From: Gammaproteobacteria bacterium
Lineage (GTDB): Bacteria; Pseudomonadota; Gammaproteobacteria; Steroidobacterales; Steroidobacteraceae
Direction: 5' to 3'
DNA length: 64,000 nucleotides
Assembly: GCA_018970145.1 (NCBI GenBank)
Contig: JAGWWY010000001.1
Location: 310,001-374,000 of the forward strand
Below, in pieces: positions 2,247 through 16,453 of the stretch (position 1 is the stretch's first letter; every line of letters starts with the position of its first letter). The translations under genes and the position numbers were made by a program. The notes beneath the pieces were generated by a model, which was not told the DNA's origin, made no database searches, and saw nothing but the letters and a program-made list of their open reading frames with translations.

Positions 2247-3737
2247 ATGCTGAACAATCGATACCCAACCCAAATCGCCCACCGTCGAATCCTGATCTCT
2301 GTGCAAGGCCGCCAAGTAATGGCTCGGGTGGCGGGCAGCGGTCCGGCGGTGTTGGCTTTACATGAGTCGCCGCGGTCCTCCCATTCGTTGTTGCCGCTGA
2401 TCGACACGCTGGCAAATCGATATACCGTGATCACGTTGGACACACCGGGTTATGGCGAATCCGATCCGCTCGAGCCGACGAGGCCGGACGCGAACGATTT
2501 CGTCGCCGTGATCGGCGGGGTGCTCGATGCGTTGCAGATTCGCAAGGTGTTGCTATATGGAACGCATACCGGCGCGGCACTTGCTGTGTCGTTCGCTCTG
2601 ATGCATCCGCAGCGTGTGGCCGCGCTGGTGCTCGATGGTTTCGCGGCCTTCGATGCCGAAGAGCAGCGCGACTTCAATGATCGGTACCTCTGTCCTTTCG
2701 AGCCCGCGTGGGATGGCTCGCATCTGGCCGAACTTTGGTCGCGCGTTCGCGATCTGTACATGTGGTTCCCTTACCATCATCGCGATGCGGCGCACCGATT
2801 GCGGACCGAGTTGCCGTCCGTCGGCGCGCTGTACGGTACCGTACGCGGGTTTCTCGCCAGTGGCGCCGGGTATTGGCGCGGCTATCGCTGTGCAGGCGCG
2901 ATCGATGCGCCAGCGGCCGCCCAGGCTTTACGTGTTCCGACTTTGTTGACCGCGCGACCACACGATCTCATCGCGGCCCACTTGCAACGTATCCAATCGT
3001 CAAACCACGTACAGGTGCAGACGCTCGGTCCTTCGATCGAAGAGTGGGCTGGAGCGATCGCTGCGCACTTCGCTAGTCACGAATCGGATGTTGCGATGGT
3101 ATCGACCCGTAGCGGCGAGCGTCGTTTGGCGTATCTCGGGCAAGGTGCGCTGCATTTTCGCGAAGCGGAAGGAGTGGGGCGCCCTCTGGTTGTCATACCC
3201 GATCTGCCGACCGGCACAATCGATACACCCTGGACATCCGAAAGACCCTGCTGGGTGATCGATCCACCCGGCTGCGGCTATTCCGATCCGCTCGCCGAAG
3301 GGCAAGAGTCGATCGGCAACTGGGTCGCGGCGCTCGTTTGGTTAATGAGCGAGCGGGGCATCGACGCCTACGACGTCACCGGTTCTGGATTCGGGGCGGT
3401 ATTCGCTCGACACCTCGCCGCGCTTGATCGTCGTGCCCGCCTAGCCCCGTTGCAAGCGGAGCCGGTCTGGTCTGCAACCGGTGTCGGTACAACCGGCGAG
3501 CGGCTTGTACCGAAGCCGTGGGCAGACCCTGACGGTGGCGCGTTGTTCGCAACTTGGTATCGGTTGCGCGACCTGCGCTACTACGATGAGATTGCGCAAG
3601 GTATCCCGCGATCGCGGCGCGAAGGCGCCGTAAGCGAATTCGACACGCAGCGCCTCTACGCGGCGCATAAGGGCTTGTGGCTCGCGCCGGAGTCTTCAGA
3701 CCTCATCACGCTGCTGCAAGCCGCGCGATTCGCGTAG
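2247..3737 (+). CDS. Tandem alpha/beta-hydrolase-fold protein without nucleophile serines
   Basis: 496 residues that read as two consecutive alpha/beta-hydrolase-fold units. Unit 1 (about 1-280) has an HESP loop near 39, a DTPGYGESD strand-turn near 65-73, and a nucleophile elbow at GTHTG (105-109), with His107 where a Ser, Asp or Cys normally sits. Unit 2 (about 290-496) repeats the layout, with DPPGCGYSD near 339 and the elbow GSGFG (379-383), where Gly381 replaces the nucleophile. No signal peptide is evident. Some alpha/beta-hydrolase relatives carry a His-Thr-Gly elbow, so unit 1 may not be inactive; I cannot assign a reaction. The 3' end overlaps the opposing dipeptidase gene by 42 bases. 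Confidence 0.7.
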   Translation: MLNNRYPTQIAHRRILISVQGRQVMARVAGSGPAVLALHESPRSSHSLLPLIDTLANRYTVITLDTPGYGESDPLEPTRPDANDFVAVIGGVLDALQIRKVLLYGTHTGAALAVSFALMHPQRVAALVLDGFAAFDAEEQRDFNDRYLCPFEPAWDGSHLAELWSRVRDLYMWFPYHHRDAAHRLRTELPSVGALYGTVRGFLASGAGYWRGYRCAGAIDAPAAAQALRVPTLLTARPHDLIAAHLQRIQSSNHVQVQTLGPSIEEWAGAIAAHFASHESDVAMVSTRSGERRLAYLGQGALHFREAEGVGRPLVVIPDLPTGTIDTPWTSERPCWVIDPPGCGYSDPLAEGQESIGNWVAALVWLMSERGIDAYDVTGSGFGAVFARHLAALDRRARLAPLQAEPVWSATGVGTTGERLVPKPWADPDGGALFATWYRLRDLRYYDEIAQGIPRSRREGAVSEFDTQRLYAAHKGLWLAPESSDLITLLQAARFA

Positions 3738-4955
3738 TCTTATCGCTACCCGCTCGGTTTGTTCCCAAGCTCGCAACACGTTTTCGCCAGCAAGCTTGCG
3801 CAGCTCGGCGTCTGTCCAACCGCGGCGGATGAGCTCGGCGAAGAGGCGCGGATAGCTCGATACATCGTCGAGCCCCTCTGGCCAATTTGGGTTACCGTCA
3901 AAGTCGCCACCGATACCGACATGGTCGACACCGGCCACACGGCGTACATGCTCGATGTGATCGGCCACCATGCCGATGGTCGTGACGGGAGTTTTGATGG
4001 CGGCCATGCCTTCACGCATGATCCGCTCGCGTTCCTCGGGAGTCGCTGCGGCGCGAGCGCGCAAGGCGAGCTCAGCCATGGCCGGTTGCACGATACGTCC
4101 CACTTCGCAGTTCACGAAACCGGCGACGAAGGTGATCATCACGACGCCGCCATTGCGCGGTAACCCGCGCAGGATGTCATCGGGTACGTTGCGTGGTACG
4201 TCGCACACGCCCCGCGCGGAGGAATGCGAAAAAATCACCGGGGCTTCGCTGATACGCAGTGTGGCAGCCATCGTGGCCGGAGACGCATGTGACAGGTCGA
4301 TCAGCATGCCGAGGCGATTCATTTCACGGACGACTTCCTCGCCAAACGACGTGAGACCGTTGTGACGCGGTGGTAGCTGCGCGGCTGCGTCGGCCCAGTC
4401 CGTGTGCGCGTTATGCGTGAGCGCCATGTATCGAACGCCGAGCGCGTAGTAAGCGCGCAGCACGCCCAAAGAATTCTCGATCCCGTAGCCACCCTCCATG
4501 CCCAACATTGAGGCGATACGCCCCGCGCGTTTGGCTGCGCGAACATCCGCCACGCTGGTGGCAAATTGGAAAGTGTCCGGATAGCGCTCGATGATGCGAC
4601 GGGCGAGCTCGATTTGCTCGAGTTGGGGGCGAGCGAAAGGGCCGCGACCTTCACCGGGGATGTAGACCGACCAGAATTGAGCGCCGAGCCTGCCCTCGCG
4701 AAGCCGCGCAATGTCGGTGTCGCCCTCGGTGGGTTGTCGCAAGTCGTACGCCGCCACGTCGCCCGGCGCTTTGCTGTACTGCCGGATCGCCATGGGCAGA
4801 TCGTTATGACCATCGACGAGGATGGTCGACTCGAGCACCGCGATCGCGCGTTTGAGCGAGTCGTCTGGTTCAGCCGTCGAAGCGGGCGCGACAGCGTGGG
4901 CAAGGGCGAGCAGTGCGGCGCTCGTGGCGAGCCGGGCGGAGCGAGTGGTCTTCAT
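3696..4955 (-). CDS. Membrane dipeptidase (peptidase family M19), secreted
   Basis: Zinc dipeptidase of the renal-dipeptidase family (M19), which cleaves dipeptides and often tolerates a D-residue at the C-terminal position. About 419 residues. An N-terminal signal peptide (MKTTRSARLA, then an Ala-rich core ending near AST-AE) places it in the periplasm. Family motifs seen in order: DGHNDLP (metal-binding HxD), LGMEGG, LTHNAHTDWADAA, DLSHAS, FSHSSARGVCDVPRN and GIGGDFDG. The ATG at 4955 begins the signal peptide; an in-frame TTG at 4961 sits better relative to an AAGGGA site and is an alternative. The gene is divergent from the LD-carboxypeptidase. Together they could trim cell-wall peptides to free amino acids. 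Confidence 0.9.
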   Translation of the reverse strand: MKTTRSARLATSAALLALAHAVAPASTAEPDDSLKRAIAVLESTILVDGHNDLPMAIRQYSKAPGDVAAYDLRQPTEGDTDIARLREGRLGAQFWSVYIPGEGRGPFARPQLEQIELARRIIERYPDTFQFATSVADVRAAKRAGRIASMLGMEGGYGIENSLGVLRAYYALGVRYMALTHNAHTDWADAAAQLPPRHNGLTSFGEEVVREMNRLGMLIDLSHASPATMAATLRISEAPVIFSHSSARGVCDVPRNVPDDILRGLPRNGGVVMITFVAGFVNCEVGRIVQPAMAELALRARAAATPEERERIMREGMAAIKTPVTTIGMVADHIEHVRRVAGVDHVGIGGDFDGNPNWPEGLDDVSSYPRLFAELIRRGWTDAELRKLAGENVLRAWEQTERVAIRLRESRGLQQRDEV

Positions 4956-5009
4956 GCGCAAAGTGTCATCCCTTCGTAGCGCCTTGCGCAAGCGCGCGCC
5001 GGTGGCACG

Positions 5010-5015
5010 TATACT
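5010..5015 (+). promoter_or_regulatory. Candidate -10 element for the LD-carboxypeptidase gene
   Basis: TATACT lies 30 bases before the ATG at 5045 in the divergent intergenic region. I see no clear -35 at standard spacing, so this is only a candidate. It would give a leader of about 23 bases that contains the GAGGGGGG ribosome site. Confidence 0.35.
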
Positions 5016-5044
5016 CGGTCGATAGATCCAGAGAGGGGGGCATC

Positions 5045-6103
5045 ATGACTAATCGGCGGGAGTGGATTTCGGCCGCAACAGCGGCCGCTTTTGGTGCGCT
5101 CTTGGCGCAGCCGAGTCTCGGTAGCGCGTGGCCTGCGGGCGCCGAACGCCGCCGGCGCAGCGTCAAACCACCGCGCATCCAAGTCGGTGACACGATCGGC
5201 CTCATGATCCCGGCCAGCGCCAATTGGGATCCAAACGATGTCGACGTCCTGCTCGAATCGCTGGCTGCCCTCGGTTTGAAAGGCAAGCTCGGCAAGCACG
5301 TATTTGATCGTTACGGCTATTTGGCGGGTCGCGATGAGGATCGTGCGGCCGATCTCAACACACTGTTTCGCGATCCTGAGGTAAGAGCCATTCATTGCAT
5401 TCGTGGCGGTTGGGGTTCGGCGCGCCTGTTGCCGCTGCTCGACTTCGATGCGATCGCGAAGAATCCGAAGGCACTCATCGGCTACAGCGACATCACCGCC
5501 TTGCTACTCGCGTTGCACGCCAAGACCGGGCTCGTCACGTTTCACGGTCCAAACGGGGCGAGCGAGTGGAATCAGACGAACGTGGAGTGGCTGCAACGGG
5601 TGCTGTGGCAGGGCGAAGCGGTGACTTTCGAAAATCCGCGGGAGGCGGGTGAGTTACTCGCTCCGGTCAAAAATCGCACGCGGACGTTGCGCGCCGGTGT
5701 CGCGCGTGGTCGTCTGCTCGGCGGTAATCTCACGGTCCTCACGGCTCTGCTTGGCTCCTCCTACGTTCCCGATTTCACCGGGGCCATACTCTTTCTTGAG
5801 GACATCGACGAGGCACCGTACCGCATCGATCGAATGCTAGTGCAACTGAAACTCGCTGGCGTGCTCGATAAACTGGCCGGATTTGTTTGGGGCAACTGCA
5901 CCGATTGCGGACCCGGCGAAGGTTATGGGTCGCTGACGATTCCCGACGTCTTGCGTGATCACATCGAACCGCTAGGCATCCCAGCCTACTCGGGCGCGAT
6001 GTTCGGACACATCAACCGGCAGTTCACGCTGCCCGTGGGTGCAGAGGTCGAGCTCGATGCGGTACGCGGTACGCTCCGAATGTTGGAGAGTGCCGTCACG
6101 TAA
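5045..6103 (+). CDS. ldcA: LD-carboxypeptidase (muramoyltetrapeptide carboxypeptidase, S66)
   Basis: Serine peptidase of family S66, which removes the terminal D-Ala from muropeptide tetrapeptides (an L,D-bond). 352 residues. Family landmarks: IRGGWGSARLL, GYSDIT (nucleophile-serine region), FLEDIDEAPYRIDRML (Glu region) and FGHINRQFTLPVG (His region), together the S66 Ser-Glu-His triad. The N-terminus TNRREWISAATAAAFG resembles a twin-arginine signal, so export folded through Tat is likely. Canonical LdcA is cytoplasmic, so export suggests work on external wall fragments. Start at 5045 is set by a GAGGGGGG ribosome site. It lies between a secreted dipeptidase and an Oar-like receptor. Confidence 0.9.
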   Translation: MTNRREWISAATAAAFGALLAQPSLGSAWPAGAERRRRSVKPPRIQVGDTIGLMIPASANWDPNDVDVLLESLAALGLKGKLGKHVFDRYGYLAGRDEDRAADLNTLFRDPEVRAIHCIRGGWGSARLLPLLDFDAIAKNPKALIGYSDITALLLALHAKTGLVTFHGPNGASEWNQTNVEWLQRVLWQGEAVTFENPREAGELLAPVKNRTRTLRAGVARGRLLGGNLTVLTALLGSSYVPDFTGAILFLEDIDEAPYRIDRMLVQLKLAGVLDKLAGFVWGNCTDCGPGEGYGSLTIPDVLRDHIEPLGIPAYSGAMFGHINRQFTLPVGAEVELDAVRGTLRMLESAVT

Positions 6104-6223
6104 CGCGTATTCGCGAGCGCTCGTGGCGCGCGCGCAACACCGAAGGGTTGCGCGCCGCGCCGGAAAGTATTTGAATCACAACATCGTTTGCCCCCGAGAC
6201 AACAAGACCCCGAGGGAGGGAAT

Positions 6224-9199
6224 ATGAAGGGTATCCGGCTAGTCGTTTCCGCGATCATCGCGGGTTCCGTATTGAGTTCGCCGATCATCGCCCAGCAGGT
6301 CGGTGGGATTCGAGGCAAGGTCAGTGCTGAAGCGGCCGGCACCAGCCTCTCGGGTATCACCGTCACGGCCACCTCCGCCGTGATGCCGAAACCGCGTACG
6401 GCCGGCGTGCGCGAAGACGGCAGCTTCAGCTTGCCGTTGCTGCTACCCGGTCGCTACACGCTGACGTTCGCCAATGCGAGCGGCGTGCTACAAAAAGTCG
6501 ATGTCGATGTCCTGCTCGATCAAACGACTACGGCCGATGTGTCGGTCGGTGCGACACGCGGCGATGCGGCTCTCGAAACCGTGCGCATCGTCGCGAGCGG
6601 TTTGTCGCGTGAAGGCAATGCGTCGATCTCGAACTCGTTGGGTTCGGACAATATCGAGCGTCTCCCGGTTGGTCAGGAGTATCGCGATCTCCTCAAGCTG
6701 ATTCCCGGCGTGCAGTACTCCGAGAACAAGACGCTCGGCCCCTCGGCCGGCGGCTCGGGCGTCGACAACAAATACGGTTTCGACGGTGTTGATGTCTCCT
6801 TGCCTTTGTTCGGTAATCTGGCCTCGGATCCCTCGACGCACGATGTCGCCAACGTCTCCATGGAGCGCGGTGGTGCCAAAGCCATCGGCTTCAATCGCGC
6901 GGGCGGATTCTCCATCAACACCACTTCCAAGTCGGGCACGAACGAGTTCAAAGGCTCGGTCGAGTACAAGACCCAACCGAAGAGCATGGTTGCCAAAATT
7001 CGCGGCACAACGAGCTACCAGCTCGAGCAGACCTGGATGAGCGCCGCCTTCGGCGGGCCGATCATCGAAGACTCGCTGTTCTTTTACGCTTCGTACTATC
7101 GACCGGAGGTCAATAAAGACAATCCGGTGACCGCTTACGGCGAGGTCAAAGATTACGAGAGCGTGCGCGACGAATACTTTGGCAAGCTGACCTGGGCACC
7201 GACCGACAATTTGTTGTTCAATTTGAGTTTGCGTACGTCAGATCGTGAGGGTCGAGGCTTTGGCATCGGCGCCTTCGATCCCGATTCTCAAAGTGTGGGT
7301 GAGGCTTCATATCAAGACATTCTCACGCTTGATGGCTCGTGGATCATGGGCGAGAACTCGACCCTGAGCTTCAAGGCTGGCAAGTTCGAGCTCGAGACCG
7401 CCTCGGTTCCGGACGTATTGCTCGGCTTTACGGGCAAGATCGGCGATCGGCTCAACATCGCCGATCTGACCAATCAAGGACGATTCACCGTCCCGACGCT
7501 GATCACGGCGACCACGGCCGCACAGATTGCGCGTAACGCCGCCGCGCAGACCTTGATCAATCAATACGGCTATACCAACTCCTCGGGCGTCAAAGCCGGT
7601 GGTGGGCGAGTGGGTGTGTTCCCCGAAATCAACGACCAGAACTTCTACCGTGATACGGCCGAAGTGGCCTTCGATCACAAGTTCGAAGTTGGGGAGACTC
7701 AGCACAAGCTGCATGTCGGCGCTAAGTACTCCAAAATCACCGAGGAGTTGCTGCGGTCGGCCAACGGTTGGGGCACGATCTCCTTCAACGGCAATCTGAG
7801 TAACACGACCACGCTCGGCACGCGGAACGTACCCTATGCCTATCAGGCTACGTTGTTACAAGCCGGTGCCACAGACTCGGCCGGCAATCCACTGACGCCG
7901 TCGATCGACTCCCAGGTCGAGTCGTACAACCTCGAAATCAACGACACCATCACGGCTGGGGACTTCGAGTACAACCTCGGCGTGCTCCTCAGTCAGGACG
8001 AGCTCTATGGCCAGGGTCTGCGCCCGAAGGCGGGCACGATTTCCGGTTACGAGCTTGCACCGGGCAACCGCTACAAGATGTACACCGTCGACTGGAAGGA
8101 TCTGATCCAGCCGCGCCTGGGTGTGACATGGCGCTATCAGGGCAACGACACGATCTTCGCCAATTTTGCCTCTTACAACCCCGAAGCGTCGTCACTCGCG
8201 CGCGCGGCGTCGTGGGATCGGAGCTTGTTCGGTCGTTTGGTCGACGTGCGCTTCGACAGCGCCGGCAACTTCCTCGAAGCAGCGTATCGCGGCTCATCGA
8301 GCGGTAAGTTTTTCGCGGAGGGTTTGAAGCCGCGTCGGATCGACGAGTTCACGATCGGTACGACGAAGGCTCTGCAGTCTGGGTGGTCGTTGCGCGGTCA
8401 CCTGCGCTACCGTGAGGGCTCGCACTTCTGGGAAGACGTACCGAACGATGCGCGCTTGCGAGTGTACGGACCGAACGGGGGAGCGCCGGCCGACATTCGT
8501 GCCTTGGGCTTGTACGTACCGAATCTCGCTGCGGTTCGAGCCGAGATCGGTGGTTCGAGCTATGTCATTGCCGAGATGGATGGCGCCTACACCAAATACT
8601 ACGAGGCGAGCCTCGAGGCCGAGTGGGTGGGTGAGCGTACCTATCTGAATGCGTCCTACGTTCGCAGCCGATACCGTGGCAACTTCGACCAAGACAACAC
8701 CACGACGGTCAACGACGCCAACACCTTCATCGGCTCGTCGTTCTATGCCGACGATCCGGGCAAGTTCACTTGGGACAATAAGGACGGCACGCTCTCGGGC
8801 GATCGGCCGCACTTGCTCAAAGTATTCGGTCATTACACGACCGATTGGAAAGCCAACCTCGGCGCATACTTCGTGTTTCAGTCGGGTCAGCCGTGGGAGA
8901 AGTGGTCGGGCACGTACTACGGTCTGCGTGTCAACAACTCTTACGACACGACATCCTCTTACGCCGAGCCCGCGGGTAGCCGACGCAGCGCGAGCCACTG
9001 GCAGCTCGATCTGAACTATACGCAGGAATTCCAGATGGCTTCTTTGCCTACCCTGAAGTTCCGCGCCGATCTCTTCAACGTGTTCGATCGTCAGACGGGA
9101 TACAACATCGATCCAGTTGACTACAGCCCGCAGTTTGGTCAAGCCCGCAGCTTCTTCTTGCCGCGGCGTGTACAGATCTCGTTGCGCGTCGATTTCTGA
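6224..9199 (+). CDS. Oar-like TonB-dependent receptor with carboxypeptidase-regulatory domain
   Basis: Large (991 residues) Oar-type outer-membrane receptor. A signal peptide ends near IIAQQ. An N-terminal carboxypeptidase-regulatory-like beta-sandwich follows (about 22-115: GGIRGKVSAE, SGITVTATS, DGSFSLPLLLPGRYTL). A plug contains GFDGVDVSLPLFG and RGGAKAIGFNRAGGFSINTTSKSGTN. The long barrel ends in VQISLRVDF with a C-terminal Phe. Oar-like proteins are associated with uptake or export of large or peptide-linked substrates; the ligand here is unknown. ATG at 6224 has a strong GAGGGAGGGA site; an upstream TTG at 6188 lacks one. An intrinsic terminator follows. The setting suggests uptake of wall-derived peptides or glycopeptides, by inference only. 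Confidence 0.92.
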   Translation: MKGIRLVVSAIIAGSVLSSPIIAQQVGGIRGKVSAEAAGTSLSGITVTATSAVMPKPRTAGVREDGSFSLPLLLPGRYTLTFANASGVLQKVDVDVLLDQTTTADVSVGATRGDAALETVRIVASGLSREGNASISNSLGSDNIERLPVGQEYRDLLKLIPGVQYSENKTLGPSAGGSGVDNKYGFDGVDVSLPLFGNLASDPSTHDVANVSMERGGAKAIGFNRAGGFSINTTSKSGTNEFKGSVEYKTQPKSMVAKIRGTTSYQLEQTWMSAAFGGPIIEDSLFFYASYYRPEVNKDNPVTAYGEVKDYESVRDEYFGKLTWAPTDNLLFNLSLRTSDREGRGFGIGAFDPDSQSVGEASYQDILTLDGSWIMGENSTLSFKAGKFELETASVPDVLLGFTGKIGDRLNIADLTNQGRFTVPTLITATTAAQIARNAAAQTLINQYGYTNSSGVKAGGGRVGVFPEINDQNFYRDTAEVAFDHKFEVGETQHKLHVGAKYSKITEELLRSANGWGTISFNGNLSNTTTLGTRNVPYAYQATLLQAGATDSAGNPLTPSIDSQVESYNLEINDTITAGDFEYNLGVLLSQDELYGQGLRPKAGTISGYELAPGNRYKMYTVDWKDLIQPRLGVTWRYQGNDTIFANFASYNPEASSLARAASWDRSLFGRLVDVRFDSAGNFLEAAYRGSSSGKFFAEGLKPRRIDEFTIGTTKALQSGWSLRGHLRYREGSHFWEDVPNDARLRVYGPNGGAPADIRALGLYVPNLAAVRAEIGGSSYVIAEMDGAYTKYYEASLEAEWVGERTYLNASYVRSRYRGNFDQDNTTTVNDANTFIGSSFYADDPGKFTWDNKDGTLSGDRPHLLKVFGHYTTDWKANLGAYFVFQSGQPWEKWSGTYYGLRVNNSYDTTSSYAEPAGSRRSASHWQLDLNYTQEFQMASLPTLKFRADLFNVFDRQTGYNIDPVDYSPQFGQARSFFLPRRVQISLRVDF

Positions 9200-9220
9200 T
9201 CGGTACACGAACGACGAAAC

Positions 9221-9243
9221 AACCCGCTTCGGCGGGTTTTTTC
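9221..9243 (+). terminator. Rho-independent terminator after the Oar-like receptor
   Basis: Stem AACCCGC/GCGGGTT (9221-9227 with 9232-9238) around a stable TTCG tetraloop, with a run of six T at 9237-9242. It lies 21 bases after the receptor stop and 30 before the next start. It separates the receptor transcript from the five-gene operon unless read through. Confidence 0.92.
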
Positions 9244-9272
9244 GTCCAGCGGGTCCACAAGCGGGGTATTCG

Positions 9273-11660
9273 ATGTTGGAGGGCGGCCCGATACGTGTGC
9301 TGGCATTGGTCGTGTTCATGATGTTTGGCTCAGTCGTATCCGCAGCGGGATCCGACTGGACCGACAAGGTGGATGCGGCGATCGAGGATGCCATCACGAA
9401 GCAGCAGATCCCCGGTGCGGTGGTGTGGATCGGGCGTGGTGATCAAACGGTCTATCGCAAGGCCTACGGGTTTCGCGCCGTACAGCCGACACCCGAGCCG
9501 ATGACGCTCGAGACCGTCTTCGACCTGGCGTCGCTGACCAAAGGCATCGCGACTGCGACATCGGTCATGATCCTCGTCGAGGAGGGCAAGCTGCGGCTCT
9601 CCGACAAAGTCGTCCAATACCTGCCTGAGTTCGCGCGGCACGGTAAAGATCAGATCACCTTGCGTCATCTGCTCACGCACACATCAGGATTGCGTCCGAG
9701 TCTCGATTTGCGTAGCGATTGGTCGGGGGCCGACGAAGCGGTTGAACGAGCCGCCGACGAGCTTCCGCACTCGGCACCGGGCGAGCGATTCGTCTACAGC
9801 GATATCGGCTATATCATCCTCGGTGACATCGTTGCGAGAGTTGCCACCCAACCGCTGCAGACGTTCGTGCAGCAGCGCATCCTCGATCCGACGCGGATGA
9901 GATCGGCTGGATTCACGCCGATGAAGGCACAACACCCTCTCATCGCGCCAACCCAGTTCTGCACCGCTTATGGATGGCCATGCGATGGCCCGAATCAAAT
10001 ACTGCTGCGAGGCATCGTGCACGACCCGACCGCTCGTCGCATGGGCGGAGTCGCCGGCCACGCGGGTTTATTTGGCTCTGCCGAAGACTTGTCGAGATAT
10101 GCGCGAATGTTGCTGCGCGGCGGCGAGCTCGATGGTCAGCGAGTATTGTCGCCCGCCGGTGTGACTCGCATGACCTCGACGGCAACGCCGCCAACGCTGC
10201 CGGTACAGCGCGGACTCGGCTGGGATATCGACAGCGGTTATTCCGCCAATCGCGGTGACTTGTATCCGATCGGGTCCTTCGGCCACACCGGTTTCACCGG
10301 CACGTCGATCTGGATCGATCCACTCACTCGATCCTATGTCGTGCTGCTCACCAACCGGGTGCATCCTGATGGCAAGGGTGACGCGACGCCCCTGCGATCC
10401 AAAGTCGCCAACATTGTTGCGGCGGAGTTCTCCACCGCCGTGCCGGCGGATCGATGGCGCGGACAGCGCTACGCATCGCCCGAGTTCGCTGCGGCGCCCC
10501 TCACGCGCTCGGTCAGCGCGAGTGAGGTACGACAAGGGATCGACGTGTTGAGGGCGAACGGATTCGCGCCGCTGCAGGGCAAACGCGTCGGGCTGCTGAC
10601 CAATCAGACCGGCCGATCGCACGATGGGTTGGCGACCATCGATTTGTTGGCGCGAGCTGACGGCGTGATTTTGGCGGCGCTGTTCAGCCCGGAGCACGGC
10701 ATTCGGGGAGAGCTCGATGACAAGGTTCCCTCATCGCGCGATCCTAAGACGGGTCTCGTCATCCACTCCCTTTATGGAGAAACTCGGCGACCGACTGAGA
10801 CGATGTTGGCGAATCTGGACGTCATCGTCATCGATTTGCAGGACGTGGGCGCGCGTTTTTATACCTATGCCACCAGCATGGCGTACATGCTCGAGGCGGC
10901 AGCGGCACGTAAGCTACCGGTGATCGTGCTAGATCGAATCAACCCGATCGATGGTGTGAGTGTCGAGGGCCCGAGTCTCGATCCGACCGAGTTGTCGTTC
11001 ACGGCGTATCAACCGATGCCGATTCGACATGGTTTGACGATCGGTGAACTGGCTCGGTATTTCAATCAAAGAGCGAGCGCAGCGCTGACGGTCATTCCCG
11101 TGCAGGGATGGGACCGTCGAAGCTGGTTCGACGAGTCCGCTCTGACTTGGGTCAATCCGTCGCCGAATCTTCGAAATCTCGTCGCGGCGAGTCTCTATCC
11201 CGGGGTTGCCACGATCGAAGGCGCGAACGTCTCGGTGGGTCGCGGTACCGATACTCCGTTCCAGCTCATCGGTGCACCGTGGATCGATGCGACTCAACTT
11301 GCGCGAGAGCTCAATTCGAGGCAGCTGGCGGGGTTGCGTGTTTATCCGGTCAGCTTCACGCCGTCGAGCAGCCGATTCGCGGGCGAAGTGTGTCACGGGG
11401 TGTTCTTTGTCGTAACCGATCGCGAGGCCTTGAAGCCGGTGCGACTGGGTGTCGAGCTAGCTCATGCGCTACAGCGTTTGTATCCGCGTGAATTCGAGCT
11501 GGATCGAATCGCAGGTTTGTTCGGGCGTCAAATGGTCGGGCAGCTTCGATCGGGCTCATCGGTGGATGCCATCGTCGAAACGTGGCGCAGGGCGGAGAGC
11601 GACTGGCGACAGTCGCGGCGAGAATTTTTGCTTTACGAAGCGATGGATTCATCGCGATGA
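9273..11660 (+). CDS. Fusion of class-C beta-lactamase-fold (AmiE-like) hydrolase and NamZ exo-muramidase
   Basis: 795 residues with a signal peptide (about 1-25). Domain 1 (about 28-390) has the serine beta-lactamase/D-peptidase fold: SLTK at 87-90 (SxxK), YSD at 175-177, HTG at 338-340 (KTG position). Domain 2 (about 415-795) is DUF1343/NamZ: GLLTNQTGR, FSPEHGIRG, DLQDVGARFYTY, DRINPI, PSPNLRN and EGANVSVGRGTD. In Bacillus, AmiE (a beta-lactamase-fold N-acetylmuramyl-L-alanine amidase) and NamZ (exo-beta-N-acetylmuramidase, GH171) are separate proteins of one muropeptide-rescue cluster. Here the folds are joined, suggesting a bifunctional periplasmic enzyme that removes the stem peptide and then MurNAc. 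ATG 9273 has GCGGGG 6 bases upstream; GTG 9297 is an alternative. Its stop overlaps the next start (ATGA). Confidence 0.88.
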   Translation: MLEGGPIRVLALVVFMMFGSVVSAAGSDWTDKVDAAIEDAITKQQIPGAVVWIGRGDQTVYRKAYGFRAVQPTPEPMTLETVFDLASLTKGIATATSVMILVEEGKLRLSDKVVQYLPEFARHGKDQITLRHLLTHTSGLRPSLDLRSDWSGADEAVERAADELPHSAPGERFVYSDIGYIILGDIVARVATQPLQTFVQQRILDPTRMRSAGFTPMKAQHPLIAPTQFCTAYGWPCDGPNQILLRGIVHDPTARRMGGVAGHAGLFGSAEDLSRYARMLLRGGELDGQRVLSPAGVTRMTSTATPPTLPVQRGLGWDIDSGYSANRGDLYPIGSFGHTGFTGTSIWIDPLTRSYVVLLTNRVHPDGKGDATPLRSKVANIVAAEFSTAVPADRWRGQRYASPEFAAAPLTRSVSASEVRQGIDVLRANGFAPLQGKRVGLLTNQTGRSHDGLATIDLLARADGVILAALFSPEHGIRGELDDKVPSSRDPKTGLVIHSLYGETRRPTETMLANLDVIVIDLQDVGARFYTYATSMAYMLEAAAARKLPVIVLDRINPIDGVSVEGPSLDPTELSFTAYQPMPIRHGLTIGELARYFNQRASAALTVIPVQGWDRRSWFDESALTWVNPSPNLRNLVAASLYPGVATIEGANVSVGRGTDTPFQLIGAPWIDATQLARELNSRQLAGLRVYPVSFTPSSSRFAGEVCHGVFFVVTDREALKPVRLGVELAHALQRLYPREFELDRIAGLFGRQMVGQLRSGSSVDAIVETWRRAESDWRQSRREFLLYEAMDSSR

Positions 11661-12448
11661 AGTGGTCGACGGCACAGGTTGCTGAGTTTTTCGAGCAAGG
11701 CTGGGTGGTCATTCCAGCCTTATTTTCTGCGCACGAGATGGCGTGCGCCCGCGAGGCGTTCGAGCGCTTGTATGTCACCGCACAGCAATTACGCACAACG
11801 CAAAATCACGCTGGCGCGTATTTCGTCTTGGATGCGCCGCCGCAGGGTGAGGTGGTGGTCAAACGCGTGGTTTGGGCTGGTGGAGCGGAGTCCGCTTTGC
11901 TCGATTTGTCAGCCGATAGTCGACTGGTTGAGCCAGCCCTGCAGTTGTTGGGTAGCGACCACTGCGAGCAGTTGCTGTGTCAGGCCCACTTCAAGATGCC
12001 AGGAGATGGCGTTTCGTTTGATTGGCACCAAGATATCCAGCACCGCGATAAGGGGCCTGGCACCTGGCAGGACTTGAACGGTCGAGGTTCGTATGTTCAG
12101 ACGATCATGCTGATCGACGACATGACGGCGAAGAACGGACCGCTCAAGTTCATTCCTCGTGAGTCGGTCCGCGGCGATGCAGAGGGGCGCATATTTTCCT
12201 CGCACTACGACTATGGCACGCCGATGGAGGCTGCAACTGCGGCGACGCAGTTCGACGAGTCGGCGGCGGTTACGATCACCGGTGAGCGTGGTTCAGTGCT
12301 GTTTTTCGGTCCTTATGCCGTGCATGGCAGCACGTCCAACGAGTCAAAGAATTCGCGTCGAGTGCTCATCAATGGCTACGCCTACCCGGGAGCCAACGGA
12401 CGGGTTTACCCCGGTGAAGGCGCGGGCCGCAGATTACCGCGCGCATGA
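11657..12448 (+). CDS. Phytanoyl-CoA dioxygenase (PhyH) family Fe(II)/2-oxoglutarate oxygenase
   Basis: 263 residues of the PhyH family, non-heme Fe(II)/2-oxoglutarate oxygenases. Visible iron ligands are His124 and Asp126 in FDWHQD and His223 in YAVHGS; an Arg pair near 234-235 (SRRVLING) is the likely 2-oxoglutarate anchor. No signal peptide, so cytoplasmic. The start at 11657 makes an ATGA overlap with the fusion gene and the stop makes another with the symporter, so it is translated as part of this operon. PhyH relatives hydroxylate diverse small molecules, including amino acids and aminophosphonates; the substrate here is unknown. A role in modifying a wall-derived amino acid is inferred only from position. 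Confidence 0.85.
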   Translation: MKWSTAQVAEFFEQGWVVIPALFSAHEMACAREAFERLYVTAQQLRTTQNHAGAYFVLDAPPQGEVVVKRVVWAGGAESALLDLSADSRLVEPALQLLGSDHCEQLLCQAHFKMPGDGVSFDWHQDIQHRDKGPGTWQDLNGRGSYVQTIMLIDDMTAKNGPLKFIPRESVRGDAEGRIFSSHYDYGTPMEAATAATQFDESAAVTITGERGSVLFFGPYAVHGSTSNESKNSRRVLINGYAYPGANGRVYPGEGAGRRLPRA

Positions 12449-13941
12449 CGTATTTCGGCACTCTCGACTGGTTGGTGGTGGCCGCGTATTTCGCGCTCGT
12501 CACCTTCATCGGTCATCGCCTGAGCGCTCGTCAATCTAACGTACACGAGTATTTCCTCGGCTCGCGCAGCTTGCCGTGGTACGCGGTGTCCGCGTCGATC
12601 ATTTCGACGACGGTCAGCGGCGTGACCTTCATCGGTGTTCCTGCACTCGTATTTGCTGACGGCGGCGATTTCCGCTATCTGCAATTCTGTGTCGCCGGGT
12701 TTATCTCGAAGTGGATATTCGGCCACTGGATCATGCCCAAGCTGTACGCGGGCTCGTATGCCAGTCCGTACGACTACATACGCGATCGGCTGGGCTCGCG
12801 CTTCGGTCAGTTGTCGGCGCTGTTGTTCTTCGTGGGAGCGATTCTGGGTCAAGGCGTGCGTATCTTTGCGGTCTCGCTGGTGCTGGAGTTATTGACCGGT
12901 CTCGGTTTCAGTTGGTGTGTGTGCTTGAGTGTCGGTGTGGCTGTGATCAGCACGTGGCTCGGTGGAGTAAGAGCGGTCGTGTGGACTGACGTTGTTCAGT
13001 TCTTGATGTTGATTGCCGGTGGTTTGATCGCTGTCGGATATGTCGCGACGGAGTATCCGGGTGGGTTCAGTGCGCTGCTCGGTGCAGCGGACAACGCTGG
13101 AAAAACGCGCATCTTCGACTTTTCGACCGACCCGCTCGTGAGCTTTACCTTCTGGGCCGGTGTCTTCGCGATGCCGTTTCAGAATCTCGCTGCCTACGGT
13201 ACCGATCAACTGAACACGCAACGCATGTTGTGTTGTCGATCCGTGACCGAGGCGCGTCGTGCGCTCTACGCGAGTAATATTGGCGAGGGCGTCGTGGTGC
13301 TGTTCTTGTTGGTGGGTGTATCGCTGTGGGGTTTTTACGGTCGCGAGGTCATCGACCCGGCTTTCGCGAGCATGGTGGCGGAAAACACTGATCGGATTTT
13401 TCCGGCGTTCATACTCTCCGAGTTGCCGAGTGGATTGCGCGGTTTCATGGTCGCGGCGCTCTTTGCGGCTGCCATGTCGAGTCCCGTCTTGTCGGCCCTC
13501 GCCGAGACCAGTCTCACGATGTTCCATGAGGGGCATCGTCGTGGAACCCTCGCTGATGCCGATGCCGTGTGGCTGTCGCGTTTGCTCGTTGCACTCTGGG
13601 GGCTTGCGCTCGGTGGCTTTGCCATCCTACTCGGCGGAACCGACGAGCGACTCATCCCGCTCGCGTTCGCCATGACGGCCTACACGTATGGATCGATGTT
13701 GGGTTTGTTCCTGATGGCGTTGTTCATCCCGAAGCGATACATCCGACAGCCCGCGCTGGGCGTCGTGGCCTCGATCAGCGGGGTGCTCGTGATCGATAAC
13801 GCGTCGATGTTTGGTTTGGTCGAAAGCGGCGAGCTGGTCGCCTTCCCGTGGCTGTTTCCGCTCGGTTTGGGGTTATGTCTCGGCGTTGCCTTACTGCCTC
13901 TCGGTAAGCGTTACGACGCGGGACAAAGGAGCGCGATATGA
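12445..13941 (+). CDS. Sodium:solute symporter (SSS family)
   Basis: 498-residue inner-membrane transporter of the SSS family with about 13 hydrophobic segments. N-terminal signature HEYFLGSRSLPWYAVSAS and the following STTVSGVTFIG stretch are typical of sodium-coupled sugar, sialic-acid and amino-acid symporters. GTDQLNTQRMLCCRS and SSPVLSALAETS match the conserved TM8 region. No fused kinase domain. It overlaps its neighbours on both sides by 4 bases (12445-12448 and 13938-13941). It probably imports what the secreted hydrolases release, either MurNAc or a short or single amino acid; sequence alone does not decide. Confidence 0.9.
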   Translation: MTYFGTLDWLVVAAYFALVTFIGHRLSARQSNVHEYFLGSRSLPWYAVSASIISTTVSGVTFIGVPALVFADGGDFRYLQFCVAGFISKWIFGHWIMPKLYAGSYASPYDYIRDRLGSRFGQLSALLFFVGAILGQGVRIFAVSLVLELLTGLGFSWCVCLSVGVAVISTWLGGVRAVVWTDVVQFLMLIAGGLIAVGYVATEYPGGFSALLGAADNAGKTRIFDFSTDPLVSFTFWAGVFAMPFQNLAAYGTDQLNTQRMLCCRSVTEARRALYASNIGEGVVVLFLLVGVSLWGFYGREVIDPAFASMVAENTDRIFPAFILSELPSGLRGFMVAALFAAAMSSPVLSALAETSLTMFHEGHRRGTLADADAVWLSRLLVALWGLALGGFAILLGGTDERLIPLAFAMTAYTYGSMLGLFLMALFIPKRYIRQPALGVVASISGVLVIDNASMFGLVESGELVAFPWLFPLGLGLCLGVALLPLGKRYDAGQRSAI

Positions 13942-14840
13942 GAGTCCGACCGTTCGTTACAGCGTTGCTGTTGATCATCGGTATTCATTCATTACCGGCT
14001 TCCGCCGATGATCTTGAGGCGCGCTTACGCGAGATGTCGCAGCAGATCGATGGGCGGGTCTCGCTGTATGCGCGTAACCTCGACTCGGGACGCGATGTGG
14101 CGATTAACGCGGACGAGCCAGTGCGCACCGCCAGTACCATCAAATTGCCGATCGCCTGCGCGGTCGCCAAGTTCGTCGCCGATGGTCGGCACGCTTGGTC
14201 TGATCGGTTGACCATTCGGGCCGAAGATAAGGTATCGGGATCCGGTGTCTTGGCCGACTTCAGCGACGGCGAGTCGATCTCGCTGCGCGATGCCACGACG
14301 CTGATGATCATCGTCAGTGATAACACGGCCACCAACCTCATTCTGGATCGTGTGGGTGGTGATCCGGTCAACGAGTACCTGGCGTCACTCGGCCTCGAGC
14401 GCACCCGCGTGATGCGCAAGATTCGAGGTGACGGCAACCAACTCAAACCCGCGCAGGGTTGGACGCGCGAGGGGAGTCGCCCCGAGAACCAGCGCTTTGG
14501 CATCGGTGTGTCGACCCCGCGAGAAATGGTTCGTTTACTTGAGCTACTCGAGCAGGGGAAGCTCGTCGATCGCCATTCGTCGCAAGTTGTATTGCAGATG
14601 CTCGAGCGCCAGCAATACAAGGACGGCATCGGCCGTAAGGCCGATCCGTTTCGGGTGGTGAGCAAGTCGGGCTCACTCGATGCGCTGCGCAGTGATGTCG
14701 GCATCGTCTATACCGCGCACGGCCGCGTAGCGATGGCTATTACGATCGATGGTCTGCCACAGATAGACTATTCGCCCGATAACGTCGCTCAAAAATGGAT
14801 TGCCGACGTGTCGCTCGTGTTGTTGGAGGCGCTGCGATGA
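13938..14840 (+). CDS. Class-A beta-lactamase-fold serine hydrolase, periplasmic
   Basis: 300 residues with a signal peptide ending near ASADD. Catalytic motifs: STIK at 66-69 (SxxK), SDN at 127-129, KSG at 243-245 (KTG). The segment between SDN and KSG has no ExxLN motif, the usual site of the deacylating Glu166 of true class-A beta-lactamases. This favours a peptidase, esterase or amidase role over antibiotic resistance. Embedded in the muropeptide-like operon through ATGA overlaps on both sides, it could be a D,D-peptidase or amidase acting on wall fragments. Substrate unproven. Confidence 0.83.
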   Translation: MRVRPFVTALLLIIGIHSLPASADDLEARLREMSQQIDGRVSLYARNLDSGRDVAINADEPVRTASTIKLPIACAVAKFVADGRHAWSDRLTIRAEDKVSGSGVLADFSDGESISLRDATTLMIIVSDNTATNLILDRVGGDPVNEYLASLGLERTRVMRKIRGDGNQLKPAQGWTREGSRPENQRFGIGVSTPREMVRLLELLEQGKLVDRHSSQVVLQMLERQQYKDGIGRKADPFRVVSKSGSLDALRSDVGIVYTAHGRVAMAITIDGLPQIDYSPDNVAQKWIADVSLVLLEALR

Positions 14841-15835
14841 TCATTCACAAGCCATACTTGTTGTTCCTTGGCGATGCGCACGATGATCTTGCGGCCAAGA
14901 CCGCCATCGGCGTTTGGCAATGGCGACCCGAGGAGTGTGTCGGTCAGTTGCGTCTGCCGGGTTGCGTCCCGCGGTTGCCGATGGATGAAATCGATCTTGA
15001 GGAGGGTCGTCGTCGCGGTGCGCGCACGCTGCTCATTGGTGTGGCGAATCGCGGCGGCACGATCGCAGCGAGCTGGGTTTCGGTGCTCGTGCGTGCGCTG
15101 GAGCTTGGTTACGACCTTTGTAATGGTTTGCACACCCGTCTCGCCACGATCGAGCCCATTCGCGAGGCGGCTGCGCGATCCGGCGCTCGCATCATCGAAG
15201 TGCGCGAGCCGGGGCAATATCCGATCGCCAACGCGCAGCCTCGCACAGGGCGCCGTCTGCTCGCGGTGGGCACCGACTGCTCGGTTGGCAAGATGTATAC
15301 GACTTTGGCTTTGGAGCGCGAGTTGCGCGAGCGTGGCGTGTCCGCTGATTTTCGGGCAACCGGGCAGACCGGCATCATGATCGCGGGCGGCGGTGTCCCG
15401 GTCGACGCGGTGGTGTCGGATTTCGTGGCTGGCTCCGTCGAGCAGTTGTGTCCTGCCAATTCGCCTCGTCATTGGGATTTGATCGAAGGACAGGGGTCGC
15501 TCTTTCATCCCTCGTATTCGGGAGTCAGTCTCGGGCTCCTCCACGGCGCAGCGCCCGATACCTTGGTCATGTGCCATGAACCAACCCGCCGACATCTCCG
15601 CGGTTTGTCGCACTGGCCGATTCCGTCGCTTGAAGAGTGCTTCGAACTGCACTTGCGCTGCGCGCGGATGATGAACCCCGCCGCGCGTTTCGTCGGCATG
15701 GCGATCAATACTTCGGCGCTAGCGGAGGAGGCGGCGCGCCGTTTGCTCGGCGAACTCGAGCAGCGTTTCAGCCTTCCTGCCTCGGATCCCGTTCGCTACG
15801 GCGTTGCTTCGATCGTCGATGAAATGCTGCGCTGA
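14837..15835 (+). CDS. DUF1611 protein, DgcN-like (D-glutamate N-acetyltransferase family)
   Basis: 332 residues of the DUF1611 family. An N-terminal Rossmann-like half (LLFLGDA, LLIGVANRGG, DLCNGLHTRL) precedes a C-terminal P-loop half with GTDCSVGKMYTT at about 150-161 and IEGQGSLFHPSYSG. In marine Proteobacteria, DgcN of this family acts with the racemase DgcA to convert D-glutamate through an N-acetyl intermediate. D-Glu is a peptidoglycan stem residue, so its place at the end of this operon fits wall-peptide salvage. The usual partner DgcA is not adjacent here. ATG 14837 gives an ATGA overlap with the preceding gene; an upstream in-frame start at 14795 is inside that gene. Confidence 0.85.
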   Translation: MIIHKPYLLFLGDAHDDLAAKTAIGVWQWRPEECVGQLRLPGCVPRLPMDEIDLEEGRRRGARTLLIGVANRGGTIAASWVSVLVRALELGYDLCNGLHTRLATIEPIREAAARSGARIIEVREPGQYPIANAQPRTGRRLLAVGTDCSVGKMYTTLALERELRERGVSADFRATGQTGIMIAGGGVPVDAVVSDFVAGSVEQLCPANSPRHWDLIEGQGSLFHPSYSGVSLGLLHGAAPDTLVMCHEPTRRHLRGLSHWPIPSLEECFELHLRCARMMNPAARFVGMAINTSALAEEAARRLLGELEQRFSLPASDPVRYGVASIVDEMLR

Positions 15836-15850
15836 GTTCGGCGCCACGAT

Positions 15851-16453
15851 TTAGCGGCAGAGCGCGGGTTGCTGCTCGATCAAGCGGCGCGTCGCGGCGA
15901 ACTGCCGCAACGTCGCCGTCGTCGGTGTGTGTCCCTCGCCGGGCAGATACACCCCAAAGGCAATGTCTCCCTGCTTGTCGTAGAACAGTACGCCGCGCTG
16001 CGTTTCATCGCCGATGGCGAGCTCCATCACGTAGATGGTCGAAAGCAAATCGGGACGCAGATGGCCGTGCATGCCCTCGGCAACGGACTTCAGGTTGAAG
16101 AACTGGCTGCGCTTGGATGGCTCTCCCTCCGGGATGCGACCATGCGTTTCAAAGATATGACCGCCTTTCATGACGACGGTGACCGCCTCGTCCCACGTGG
16201 TGAGGCTACTCCAAATGCTGCGGAAATGACGCGCGTCGATACCGTAGCTCGCCGGCGCCAATGCGCTCTGCACGGTTGCCTCCGGCAACGAGAGTTTCGC
16301 GGCGACCCGGAACGGTGCCGGCTTGGCAGGATCCGCCATCGCCGTTTGGATGGCGGAGCGTTGCTCGTTCGTTGCGCACCATGGCGTGGCCGCATCAAGC
16401 GGTGCCGTCGAAGCGACGCAGAGACCGACTGTCAGCAGGAGTTGTTTTCCCAT
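15851..16453 (-). CDS. Exported ChuX/HutX-like heme-utilisation-fold protein
   Basis: 200 residues, not certain. After a clear signal peptide (MGKQLLLTVGLCVASTAPLDAA), the body resembles the ChuX/HutX intracellular heme-carrier family: LSLPEATVQSAL, then a W-containing TTWDEAVTVVMKGGHIFETHG, PEGEPSKRSQFFNL, GHLRPDLLSTIYVM and GVLFYDKQGDIAFGVYLPGE. These match in order the family's W...VTxIV, FNL, GHLR.D and FF/D.dG...YL landmarks. Known ChuX/HutX proteins are cytosolic, so an exported version would be unusual. Convergent with the DgcN-like gene (15 bases apart) and divergent from the next gene. It could instead be a distant paralogue with another ligand. Confidence 0.6.
   Translation of the reverse strand: MGKQLLLTVGLCVASTAPLDAATPWCATNEQRSAIQTAMADPAKPAPFRVAAKLSLPEATVQSALAPASYGIDARHFRSIWSSLTTWDEAVTVVMKGGHIFETHGRIPEGEPSKRSQFFNLKSVAEGMHGHLRPDLLSTIYVMELAIGDETQRGVLFYDKQGDIAFGVYLPGEGHTPTTATLRQFAATRRLIEQQPALCR

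What the first reader, a model, noticed from the sequence alone, without database searches (positions are those of the whole stretch)
3696..15835. Candidate peptidoglycan-fragment scavenging locus built around a fully coupled five-gene operon
Seen: an M19 dipeptidase, a Tat-type LdcA and an Oar-like receptor stand next to an operon whose four junctions are all ATGA overlaps (11657, 12445, 13938, 14837). The operon encodes an AmiE-like/NamZ fusion, PhyH, an SSS symporter, a class-A-fold hydrolase and a DgcN-like protein. Known: NamZ, AmiE, LdcA and DgcN each act on cell-wall sugars, stem peptides or D-Glu. Inference: together they form an outer-membrane-to-cytoplasm pathway feeding on foreign or self peptidoglycan. 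I do not know this combination as a described system.
Basis: partly seen in the sequence, partly recalled or inferred. Interest (0 to 1): 0.78.

Follow-up and report, generated by a model that had tools for sequence, protein, structure and literature searches.

The report
Bacterial cell-wall scavenging locus with oxygenase
A little-studied bacterium carries a gene cluster that appears to cut up cell-wall fragments and import the pieces, and its most conserved part, a transporter paired with an oxygen-using enzyme, might remove the lactate arm from the wall sugar muramic acid in a way not yet described.

Summary
In detail: five genes (9273-15835) joined by four exact ATGA overlaps, beside an M19 dipeptidase, an S66 LD-carboxypeptidase and an Oar-like receptor. 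The conserved unit is PhyH-SSS, adjacent in 15 of 15 same-genus carriers. NamZ lies within 2.5 kb in 9 of 15 and 13 kb in 12 of 15, and its NamZ partners come from two separate clades, so NamZ was recruited at least twice. LdcA recurs too; DgcN and the class-A-fold hydrolase belong to the locus only in this genome and its three closest relatives. Best mechanism: exported amidase/NamZ/peptidases free MurNAc and peptides; the symporter (as T. forsythia MurT) imports MurNAc; PhyH acts on it. Boldest untested reading: PhyH oxidatively removes the lactyl group (GlcNAc + pyruvate), doing MurQ's job. MurQ, its linked kinase and AnmK were not found in this genome; AmgK-MurU were. Against: PhyH's closest fold is an amino-acid hydroxylase; MurQ is rare in NamZ genomes anyway (1 of 24); the fusion lacks a neighbouring PhyH in three relatives; six PhyH carriers have no NamZ.

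The parts
3696..4955 (-). M19 (membrane/renal-type) dipeptidase with a signal-peptide-like N-terminus (by eye); likely splits L-Xaa-D-Xaa dipeptides (recalled family knowledge)
   Evidence: PF01244 375 bits; next to LdcA-Oar also in L054/L095, which are one genome's locus
5045..6103 (+). S66 LD-carboxypeptidase (LdcA-like), apparently exported
   Evidence: PF02016/PF17676; LdcA-receptor-PhyH-SSS order in L060, L061, L062, L074/L096; signal judged by eye
6188..9199 (+). Oar-like outer-membrane receptor
   Evidence: PF25183 + PF13620; no TonB plug domain matched
9221..9238 (+). intrinsic-terminator-like hairpin followed by T run, between the receptor and the operon
   Evidence: 17 such sites found in the region, 11.6 expected, so a single site is weak evidence
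9273..11660 (+). exported fusion: AmiE/PBP4B-like serine hydrolase (SLTK, YSD, HTG motifs by eye) + NamZ exo-N-acetylmuramidase
   Evidence: PF00144, PF07075, PF20732; same-size fusion in relatives
11657..12448 (+). PhyH-type Fe(II)/2-oxoglutarate dioxygenase, cytosolic (no signal seen); H124/D126/H223 and R234 invariant in 25 homologues
12445..13941 (+). SSS-family sodium:solute symporter, candidate MurNAc importer
   Evidence: PF00474, TIGR00813 184.2 vs 184 bits; MurT precedent PMC5790795
13938..14840 (+). exported class-A-beta-lactamase-fold serine hydrolase (STIK, SDN, KSG motifs by eye), substrate unknown
   Evidence: PF13354 210 bits; all 25 NCBIfam rows shown of 87 are below their cut-offs
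14837..15835 (+). DgcN-type (DUF1611) cytosolic enzyme, D-glutamate N-acetyltransferase family
   Evidence: NF041892 492.6 vs 480 bits; PDB 7xrj E 1.7e-117

Best explanation
An aerobic wall-fragment scavenging locus. Inferred steps: the Oar-like receptor brings wall fragments across the outer membrane; in the periplasm the amidase half of the fusion cuts MurNAc from L-Ala, the NamZ half releases MurNAc from the glycan end, and LdcA and M19 trim the stem peptide; the SSS symporter imports the freed acidic amino sugar MurNAc, as MurT does in Tannerella; in the cytosol MurNAc can be salvaged by AmgK-MurU (both found in the genome). The PhyH dioxygenase, whose gene overlaps the symporter's, acts on the imported solute; the reaction I think most likely is hydroxylation of the lactyl alpha-carbon, whose hemiketal falls apart to GlcNAc and pyruvate, an oxidative counterpart of MurQ. 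DgcN then handles D-Glu from the stem. Shown here: gene content, overlaps, conservation of the PhyH-SSS pair with NamZ or LdcA, intact dioxygenase residues, and no convincing match in this 94.65%-complete genome to MurQ, to the MurQ-linked kinase (E<=1e-8) or to AnmK. Inferred: every substrate and reaction. About 0.6 for MurNAc/wall fragments as the locus substrate; 0.22 for oxidative lactyl removal. The confidences of this and the rival readings overlap, since rival 2 also is wall scavenging.
For: (1) PhyH and SSS adjacent in 15 of 15 genus genomes with PhyH, and in 5 of 13 other carriers: G032, G045-G047, G052. (2) NamZ within 2.5 kb of PhyH in 9 of 15 and within 13 kb in 12 of 15 genus carriers (positions). 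(3) The fusion NamZ falls in a clade of 15 sequences (support 0.97), the standalone NamZ beside PhyH-SSS in the other clade of 36 (0.99), inner clade of 11 (1.0), so NamZ was joined to the pair at least twice. (4) Paraglaciecola L128 has SSS-MurQ-NamZ with an RpiR regulator, HGSNAT-like protein, GH3 and TonB-type receptor: SSS, NamZ, HGSNAT and receptor as in the genus loci, with MurQ where PhyH would be. (5) Of 16 genus genomes with NamZ of the two PhyH-linked types, 13 have PhyH and no MurQ; the 3 without PhyH (G009, G010, G015) are the 3 with MurQ plus the linked kinase; the standalone NamZ of G009/G015 nests among those of PhyH carriers (clade of 7, 0.99; inner node 0.73). (6) SSS precedent: T. 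forsythia murT-murK-murQ (PMC5790795 passages). (7) amiE, ybbC and murQ share one cluster in B. subtilis (PMC5061867 passages; that ybbC is NamZ is recalled).
Confidence: 0.55

Rival explanations
1. PhyH is a free-amino-acid hydroxylase (GriE/proline-hydroxylase-like) and the symporter imports that amino acid; the locus is a stem-peptide locus in which LdcA, M19 and amidase supply the amino acid (for example D-Ala, L-Ala, D-Glu or diaminopimelate).
For: Best sequence and fold matches are GriE and H11 or EctD; LdcA/M19 next to PhyH-SSS where no NamZ is near (L054/L095); Cys/Met PLP enzyme and amino-acid permease next to the pair in L069.
Against: In the five NamZ(-HGSNAT)-PhyH-SSS loci no relative of the window's M19 or LdcA was seen within the 19-20 kb fetched; NamZ joined the pair at least twice; only 22-24% identity to GriE, so substrate is not transferable.
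Confidence: 0.3
2. NamZ and the symporter simply feed the AmgK-MurU salvage route (Pseudomonas-type, entered by MurNAc rather than anhydroMurNAc), and PhyH is a partner with an unrelated role.
For: MurU over cut-off in 23 of 24 genus genomes; AmgK upstream of MurU in the own genome; AnmK in 0 of 24 genus genomes but 14 of 16 others, so MurNAc probably comes from a hydrolase.
Against: PhyH is the symporter's neighbour in 15 of 15 genus carriers and about as conserved as it (73-74% vs 68-71% identity between the main groups), which is unlikely for an incidental gene.
Confidence: 0.2
3. A generic receptor/peptidase/symporter neighbourhood without common substrate; the ATGA operon merely reflects compact gene order.
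For: DgcN, the class-A-fold hydrolase, fusion and M19 come and go between genomes; the fusion stands without PhyH in three genomes.
Against: Repeated association of NamZ (two clades) and LdcA with one rare PhyH subfamily (1 of 369 class genomes at E<=1e-30) is hard to get by chance.
Confidence: 0.12

Closest known systems
Bacillus subtilis murQ-murR-murP-amiE-nagZ-ybbC(namZ) and E. coli murQ-murP-pbp4B clusters
   Same: AmiE/PBP4B-type serine hydrolase and NamZ serve one MurNAc-recovery cluster (PMC5061867 passages; that ybbC is NamZ is recalled)
   Different: Here amidase and NamZ are one protein, no PTS, kinase or MurQ is in the locus, and a 2OG dioxygenase gene overlaps an SSS symporter gene
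Tannerella forsythia murT-murK-murQ
   Same: A sodium-symporter-superfamily protein imports MurNAc (PMC5790795 passages)
   Different: PhyH stands where MurK and MurQ stand; no match to the MurQ-linked kinase of G015 in the own genome at E<=1e-8
Paraglaciecola MAG locus L128 (SSS-MurQ-NamZ / RpiR / HGSNAT / GH3 / TonB-type receptor)
   Same: SSS, NamZ, HGSNAT and a TonB-type receptor together
   Different: Has MurQ at the locus; that genome's own PhyH copy is on another contig
Pseudomonas-type AnmK-AmgK-MurU recycling
   Same: AmgK and MurU found in the genome
   Different: AnmK not found in any of 24 genus genomes
Unidentified lactyl etherase of mycobacteria
   Same: MurNAc use without MurQ, in M. 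bovis BCG only under aeration, with GlcNAc implied (PMC6572805 passages; PMC13041923 abstract and Discussion)
   Different: No actinobacterial record appears among the 28 loci, a pattern-based scan; only the type of chemistry could be shared
DgcN-DgcA D-glutamate pathway
   Same: DgcN model over cut-off
   Different: No DgcA-like gene next to the locus copy; whether the own genome has one elsewhere was not tested

Membership tests
NamZ exo-N-acetylmuramidase | NamZ_N and NamZ_C domains over Pfam gathering score | tested here: met
   253.9 vs 26.9 and 155.1 vs 25 bits
NamZ exo-N-acetylmuramidase | release of MurNAc from non-reducing ends | not testable with these tools
   no assay
AmiE/PBP4B amidase | class-C-type serine hydrolase matching a specific AmiE/PBP4B model over cut-off | tested here: inconclusive
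   PF00144 met; best NCBIfam model PBP4B 144.5 bits, below its cut-off of 385; I know of no AmiE model in these libraries
Fe(II)/2OG dioxygenase (PhyH family) | PF05721 over gathering score, HxD...H triad and 2OG arginine | tested here: met
   83.3 vs 22 bits; H124, D126, H223, R234 invariant in 25 sequences; triad assigned by alignment to GriE, the arginine by position (recalled pattern)
MurQ-type MurNAc catabolism | MurQ etherase in the genome | tested here: not met
   own genome: two weak matches of 24.6 and 20.1 bits against a cut-off of 302, over part of the model; genome 94.65% complete
MurQ-type MurNAc catabolism | MurNAc/GlcNAc kinase of the MurQ-linked BadF type | tested here: not met
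   no own-genome match at E<=1e-8; other kinase families not tested
Pseudomonas-type MurNAc salvage | AmgK and MurU | tested here: met
   MurU 298.7 vs 250 bits; AmgK is the best NCBIfam model for the gene upstream of MurU but scores 266 vs a cut-off of 550
Pseudomonas-type MurNAc salvage | AnmK | tested here: not met
   0 of 24 genus genomes, own included
MurT MurNAc symporter | SSS superfamily membership | tested here: met
   TIGR00813 184.2 vs 184 bits
MurT MurNAc symporter | MurNAc transport | not testable with these tools
   none
DgcN-DgcA D-Glu pathway | DgcN over cut-off | tested here: met
   492.6 vs 480 bits
DgcN-DgcA D-Glu pathway | DgcA (enolase superfamily) gene next to DgcN | tested here: not met
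   flanks of 14837-15835 are the class-A-fold hydrolase and a HutX-like gene; rest of the genome not tested; only 4 of 9 other DgcN copies fetched have such a neighbour, so adjacency is not strictly defining

The most novel reading that the evidence does not exclude
PhyH is an oxygen-dependent MurNAc lactyl etherase: it hydroxylates the alpha-carbon of the D-lactyl ether of MurNAc imported by the partner sodium symporter, giving GlcNAc and pyruvate without prior phosphorylation. It would be a second, oxidative solution to the step for which MurQ was, by a 2019 paper, the only known enzyme, with NamZ recruited to it at least twice in one genus.
Probability: 0.22. Interest if true: 0.87.

Novelty: new variant of a known kind. 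Interest (0 to 1): 0.58.

Why it matters
[quoted passage not shown] a 2026 preprint still speaks of an unidentified lactyl etherase (PMC13041923 abstract and Discussion). This locus offers a concrete, expressible candidate for an oxidative version, with a transporter beside it. Even if PhyH turns out to hydroxylate an amino acid, the locus adds an SSS-oxygenase module to wall scavenging, in a genus where AnmK was found in 0 of 24 genomes and NamZ-like genes in 23 of 24.

Tried and rejected
MurQ absence as evidence: rejected. Among 24 other NamZ-positive genomes of the class only one has MurQ, so absence is the rule.

A class-wide survey of the PhyH subfamily gave one carrier, the own genome, of 369 at E<=1e-30, so wider statistics on neighbours were not possible there. 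Neighbours of PhyH in Myxococcota, Bacteriovoracaceae and other solitary cases were uninformative. Two of the 28 loci (L077, 26% identity; L078, 34 residues matched) were left out of all counts. G052 (L058) is a 4.2 Mb MAG titled Alphaproteobacteria; its 8 kb contig may be misbinned. The match of named loci to G handles rests on contig lengths. Not all NamZ hits went into the tree: 13 further copies, all in genomes already counted as holding a PhyH-linked type, were left out. My ORF picker takes labelled, then longest, ORFs; it missed AmgK, which one search found. The 'MurQ' query label came from a misframed slice; MurQ positions rest, and the query was replaced. Sulfatases and an OatA-like protein near PhyH-SSS in some genomes were not explained. 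In one search no fold was excluded by absence.

Literature on RdpA/SdpA/TfdA chemistry, on NamZ biochemistry and on M19 specificity is recalled, not read here. The DgcN/DgcA primary paper (PMC10030869) is not held. On print: one search found 0 papers; one search found 102 with two or more of its six terms, of which I saw a listing of 20; one search found one (PMC7522526, listing only, one mention of each term, not read); one search found one (PMC13041923). Nothing I saw in them ties MurNAc ether cleavage to an oxygenase, but that is a search of one open-access library, mostly by listings. The odds given in the text for oxidative lactyl removal were made uniform at 0.22 (a draft also said 0.25).
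Full report
Observation. Pfam finds M19, both S66 domains, an Oar-like receptor, a class-C-type beta-lactamase domain fused to NamZ_N/NamZ_C, PhyH, SSF, Beta-lactamase2 and DUF1611 N/C, all over gathering score; NCBIfam names the last protein DgcN over its cut-off. The four junctions are exact ATGA overlaps, and the frames have coding composition. All four overlaps recur in the three nearest relatives with the operon, 3 of 3 (gene ends). A terminator-like hairpin at 9221-9238 separates the receptor gene from the operon, whose first gene I start at ATG 9273.

Host. The genome is an unnamed assembly of 2,431,214 bases in 23 contigs, 94.65% complete, in a genus of which 24 genomes (own included) were searched. 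Named records with the same or related loci are titled Steroidobacteraceae, Gammaproteobacteria and other, partly surely wrong, names. Some titles point to lakes (Erken; recalled as a lake), so a freshwater home is likely but inferred.

What is conserved. I fetched the surroundings of NamZ hits, of PhyH relatives in the named collection and of further genus carriers. PhyH occurs in 15 of 24 genus genomes, and in all 15 the SSS gene is its neighbour. Three arrangements cover 14 of them: (a) fusion-PhyH-SSS-BlaA-DgcN in G000, G004, G006, G023; (b) NamZ, in 4 of 5 with an HGSNAT-like membrane protein, divergent from PhyH-SSS beside pntAB, in G001, G002, G012, G013, G018; (c) LdcA-receptor-PhyH-SSS in G003, G007, G020 and G014, with NamZ 11-13 kb off on the same contig in the first three, and M19-LdcA-Oar-PhyH-SSS in G008. 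G021's contig (11.4 kb) is too short to judge. The G008 order (L095) is the window's own order without the fusion, BlaA and DgcN, so the window reads as an M19-LdcA-Oar-PhyH-SSS core with a fusion gene added in the middle and BlaA-DgcN appended. That order of events is inference. Against a fixed unit: the fusion occurs in 8 genus genomes, with PhyH beside it in 4, without in 3 (G002, G009, G015) and cut by a contig end in 1 (G010).

Two origins of the NamZ link. A tree of NamZ domains from these loci and from other genomes puts the fusion NamZ into a clade of 15 sequences (support 0.97) and the standalone NamZ of arrangements (b) and (c) into the other clade of 36 (0.99), inner clade 1.0. NamZ was thus joined to PhyH-SSS at least twice. 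I regard this as the strongest evidence that the NamZ product and the PhyH-SSS solute are related.

MurNAc fate in the genus. AnmK (PF03702) was found in 0 of 24 genus genomes but in 14 of 16 genomes of other genera. MurU is over cut-off in 23 of 24, and AmgK lies upstream of it in the own genome. MurQ (TIGR00274; no match in the 40 genomes reaches the model's cut-off) is convincing only in G009 and G015 (225 and 234 bits) and, in pieces, G010 within the genus, and in G035 (261 bits) outside it; all other listed matches are 31.3 bits or less over part of the model. A BadF-type kinase next to MurQ (best model NagK_SO3507, below cut-off) occurs in exactly these four of 40 genomes at E<=1e-8. G009, G010 and G015 carry the fusion but no PhyH. 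So, of 16 genus genomes with NamZ of the two PhyH-linked types, 13 have PhyH without MurQ and 3 have MurQ without PhyH. These three are close kin (fusion clade 1.0), so this is perhaps one event, and in G009 and G015 MurQ and NamZ are on different contigs. Outside the genus the pattern is looser: of 13 other carriers, 2 have MurQ (G044, G052) and 7 have NamZ. And MurQ is rare in NamZ genomes of the class at large, 1 of 24. I therefore do not use MurQ absence as evidence, only the swap of partners: MurQ stands with SSS, NamZ, HGSNAT, GH3 and a TonB-type receptor in Paraglaciecola L128, and next to NamZ in G035 and G400, while PhyH stands with SSS, NamZ and HGSNAT in this genus.

The symporter. 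T. [quoted passage not shown] The window SSS reaches only the superfamily model, and its closest solved structure by profile is a bacterial sodium:solute symporter, 5nv9. Its solute is inferred.

DgcN and the class-A-fold protein. Both are confined, as part of the locus, to four genomes (own included). Of 9 DgcN copies fetched elsewhere (L148-L156; L157 is the broken end of G006's locus gene), 4 sit beside an enolase-superfamily gene, as expected for DgcA (L148 by Pfam; L149, L153, L156 by eye); the other 5, and the locus copy, do not show one. A paper calls dgcN the key gene of an irreversible racemisation route for D-acidic amino acids (PMC12363236 passages).

Verdict. Wall scavenging is the best reading of the locus. 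The new element is the PhyH-SSS core. I put 0.22 on the oxidative MurNAc etherase and 0.3 on an amino-acid hydroxylase. The matter is open in print as far as I saw: a 2019 paper calls MurQ the only known lactyl etherase (PMC6572805 passages), a 2026 preprint still seeks the mycobacterial one (PMC13041923 abstract and Discussion), and in four searches of the held library (46: 0 papers; 59: 20 of 102 listed; 89: 1 listed; 90: 1 listed) nothing I saw links MurNAc ether cleavage to an oxygenase.

Noticed in passing
genus of the window genome (G000-G023): AnmK found in 0 of 24 genus genomes yet in 14 of 16 other-genus genomes, while NamZ-like matches at E<=1e-60 occur in 23 of 24 genus genomes and 1 of 16 others (G035 has one below that threshold): an apparent switch from anhydroMurNAc to MurNAc salvage.
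   Followed up: partly
L120, L121, L130: Serine-hydrolase-NamZ fusions also exist in another gammaproteobacterial family (G186, G298; in L120 beside a DUF4015 glycosidase-like gene and a family-5 solute-binding protein) and in a Polyangiaceae MAG (G041).
   Followed up: partly
L059-L062, L096, L097: Sulfatases, and in some an acyltransferase-transglycosylase fusion protein (OatA-like), lie beside LdcA-receptor-PhyH-SSS or PhyH-SSS in several genus genomes; meaning unknown.
   Followed up: no
L069-L071: PhyH-SSS pairs (55-61% / about 50% identity) in genomes without NamZ or MurQ, in L069 beside a Cys/Met PLP enzyme and an amino-acid permease; a clue to the substrate that speaks for amino acids.
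   Followed up: partly
window 24725-29494 (-): Large NAD-dependent glutamate dehydrogenase (1589 aa), which could link glutamate from the locus to 2-oxoglutarate; distance about 9 kb, link speculative.
   Followed up: no
window 15851-16453 (-): HutX/ChuX-like protein (59 bits Pfam; 80 bits against a cut-off of 110 in NCBIfam) just after the operon, followed by an unassigned 352-aa protein.
   Followed up: no
L051, L062 record titles: Two relatives are deposited as Klebsiella pneumoniae MAGs although their loci match this Steroidobacteraceae-like genus; probably mislabelled records.
   Followed up: no
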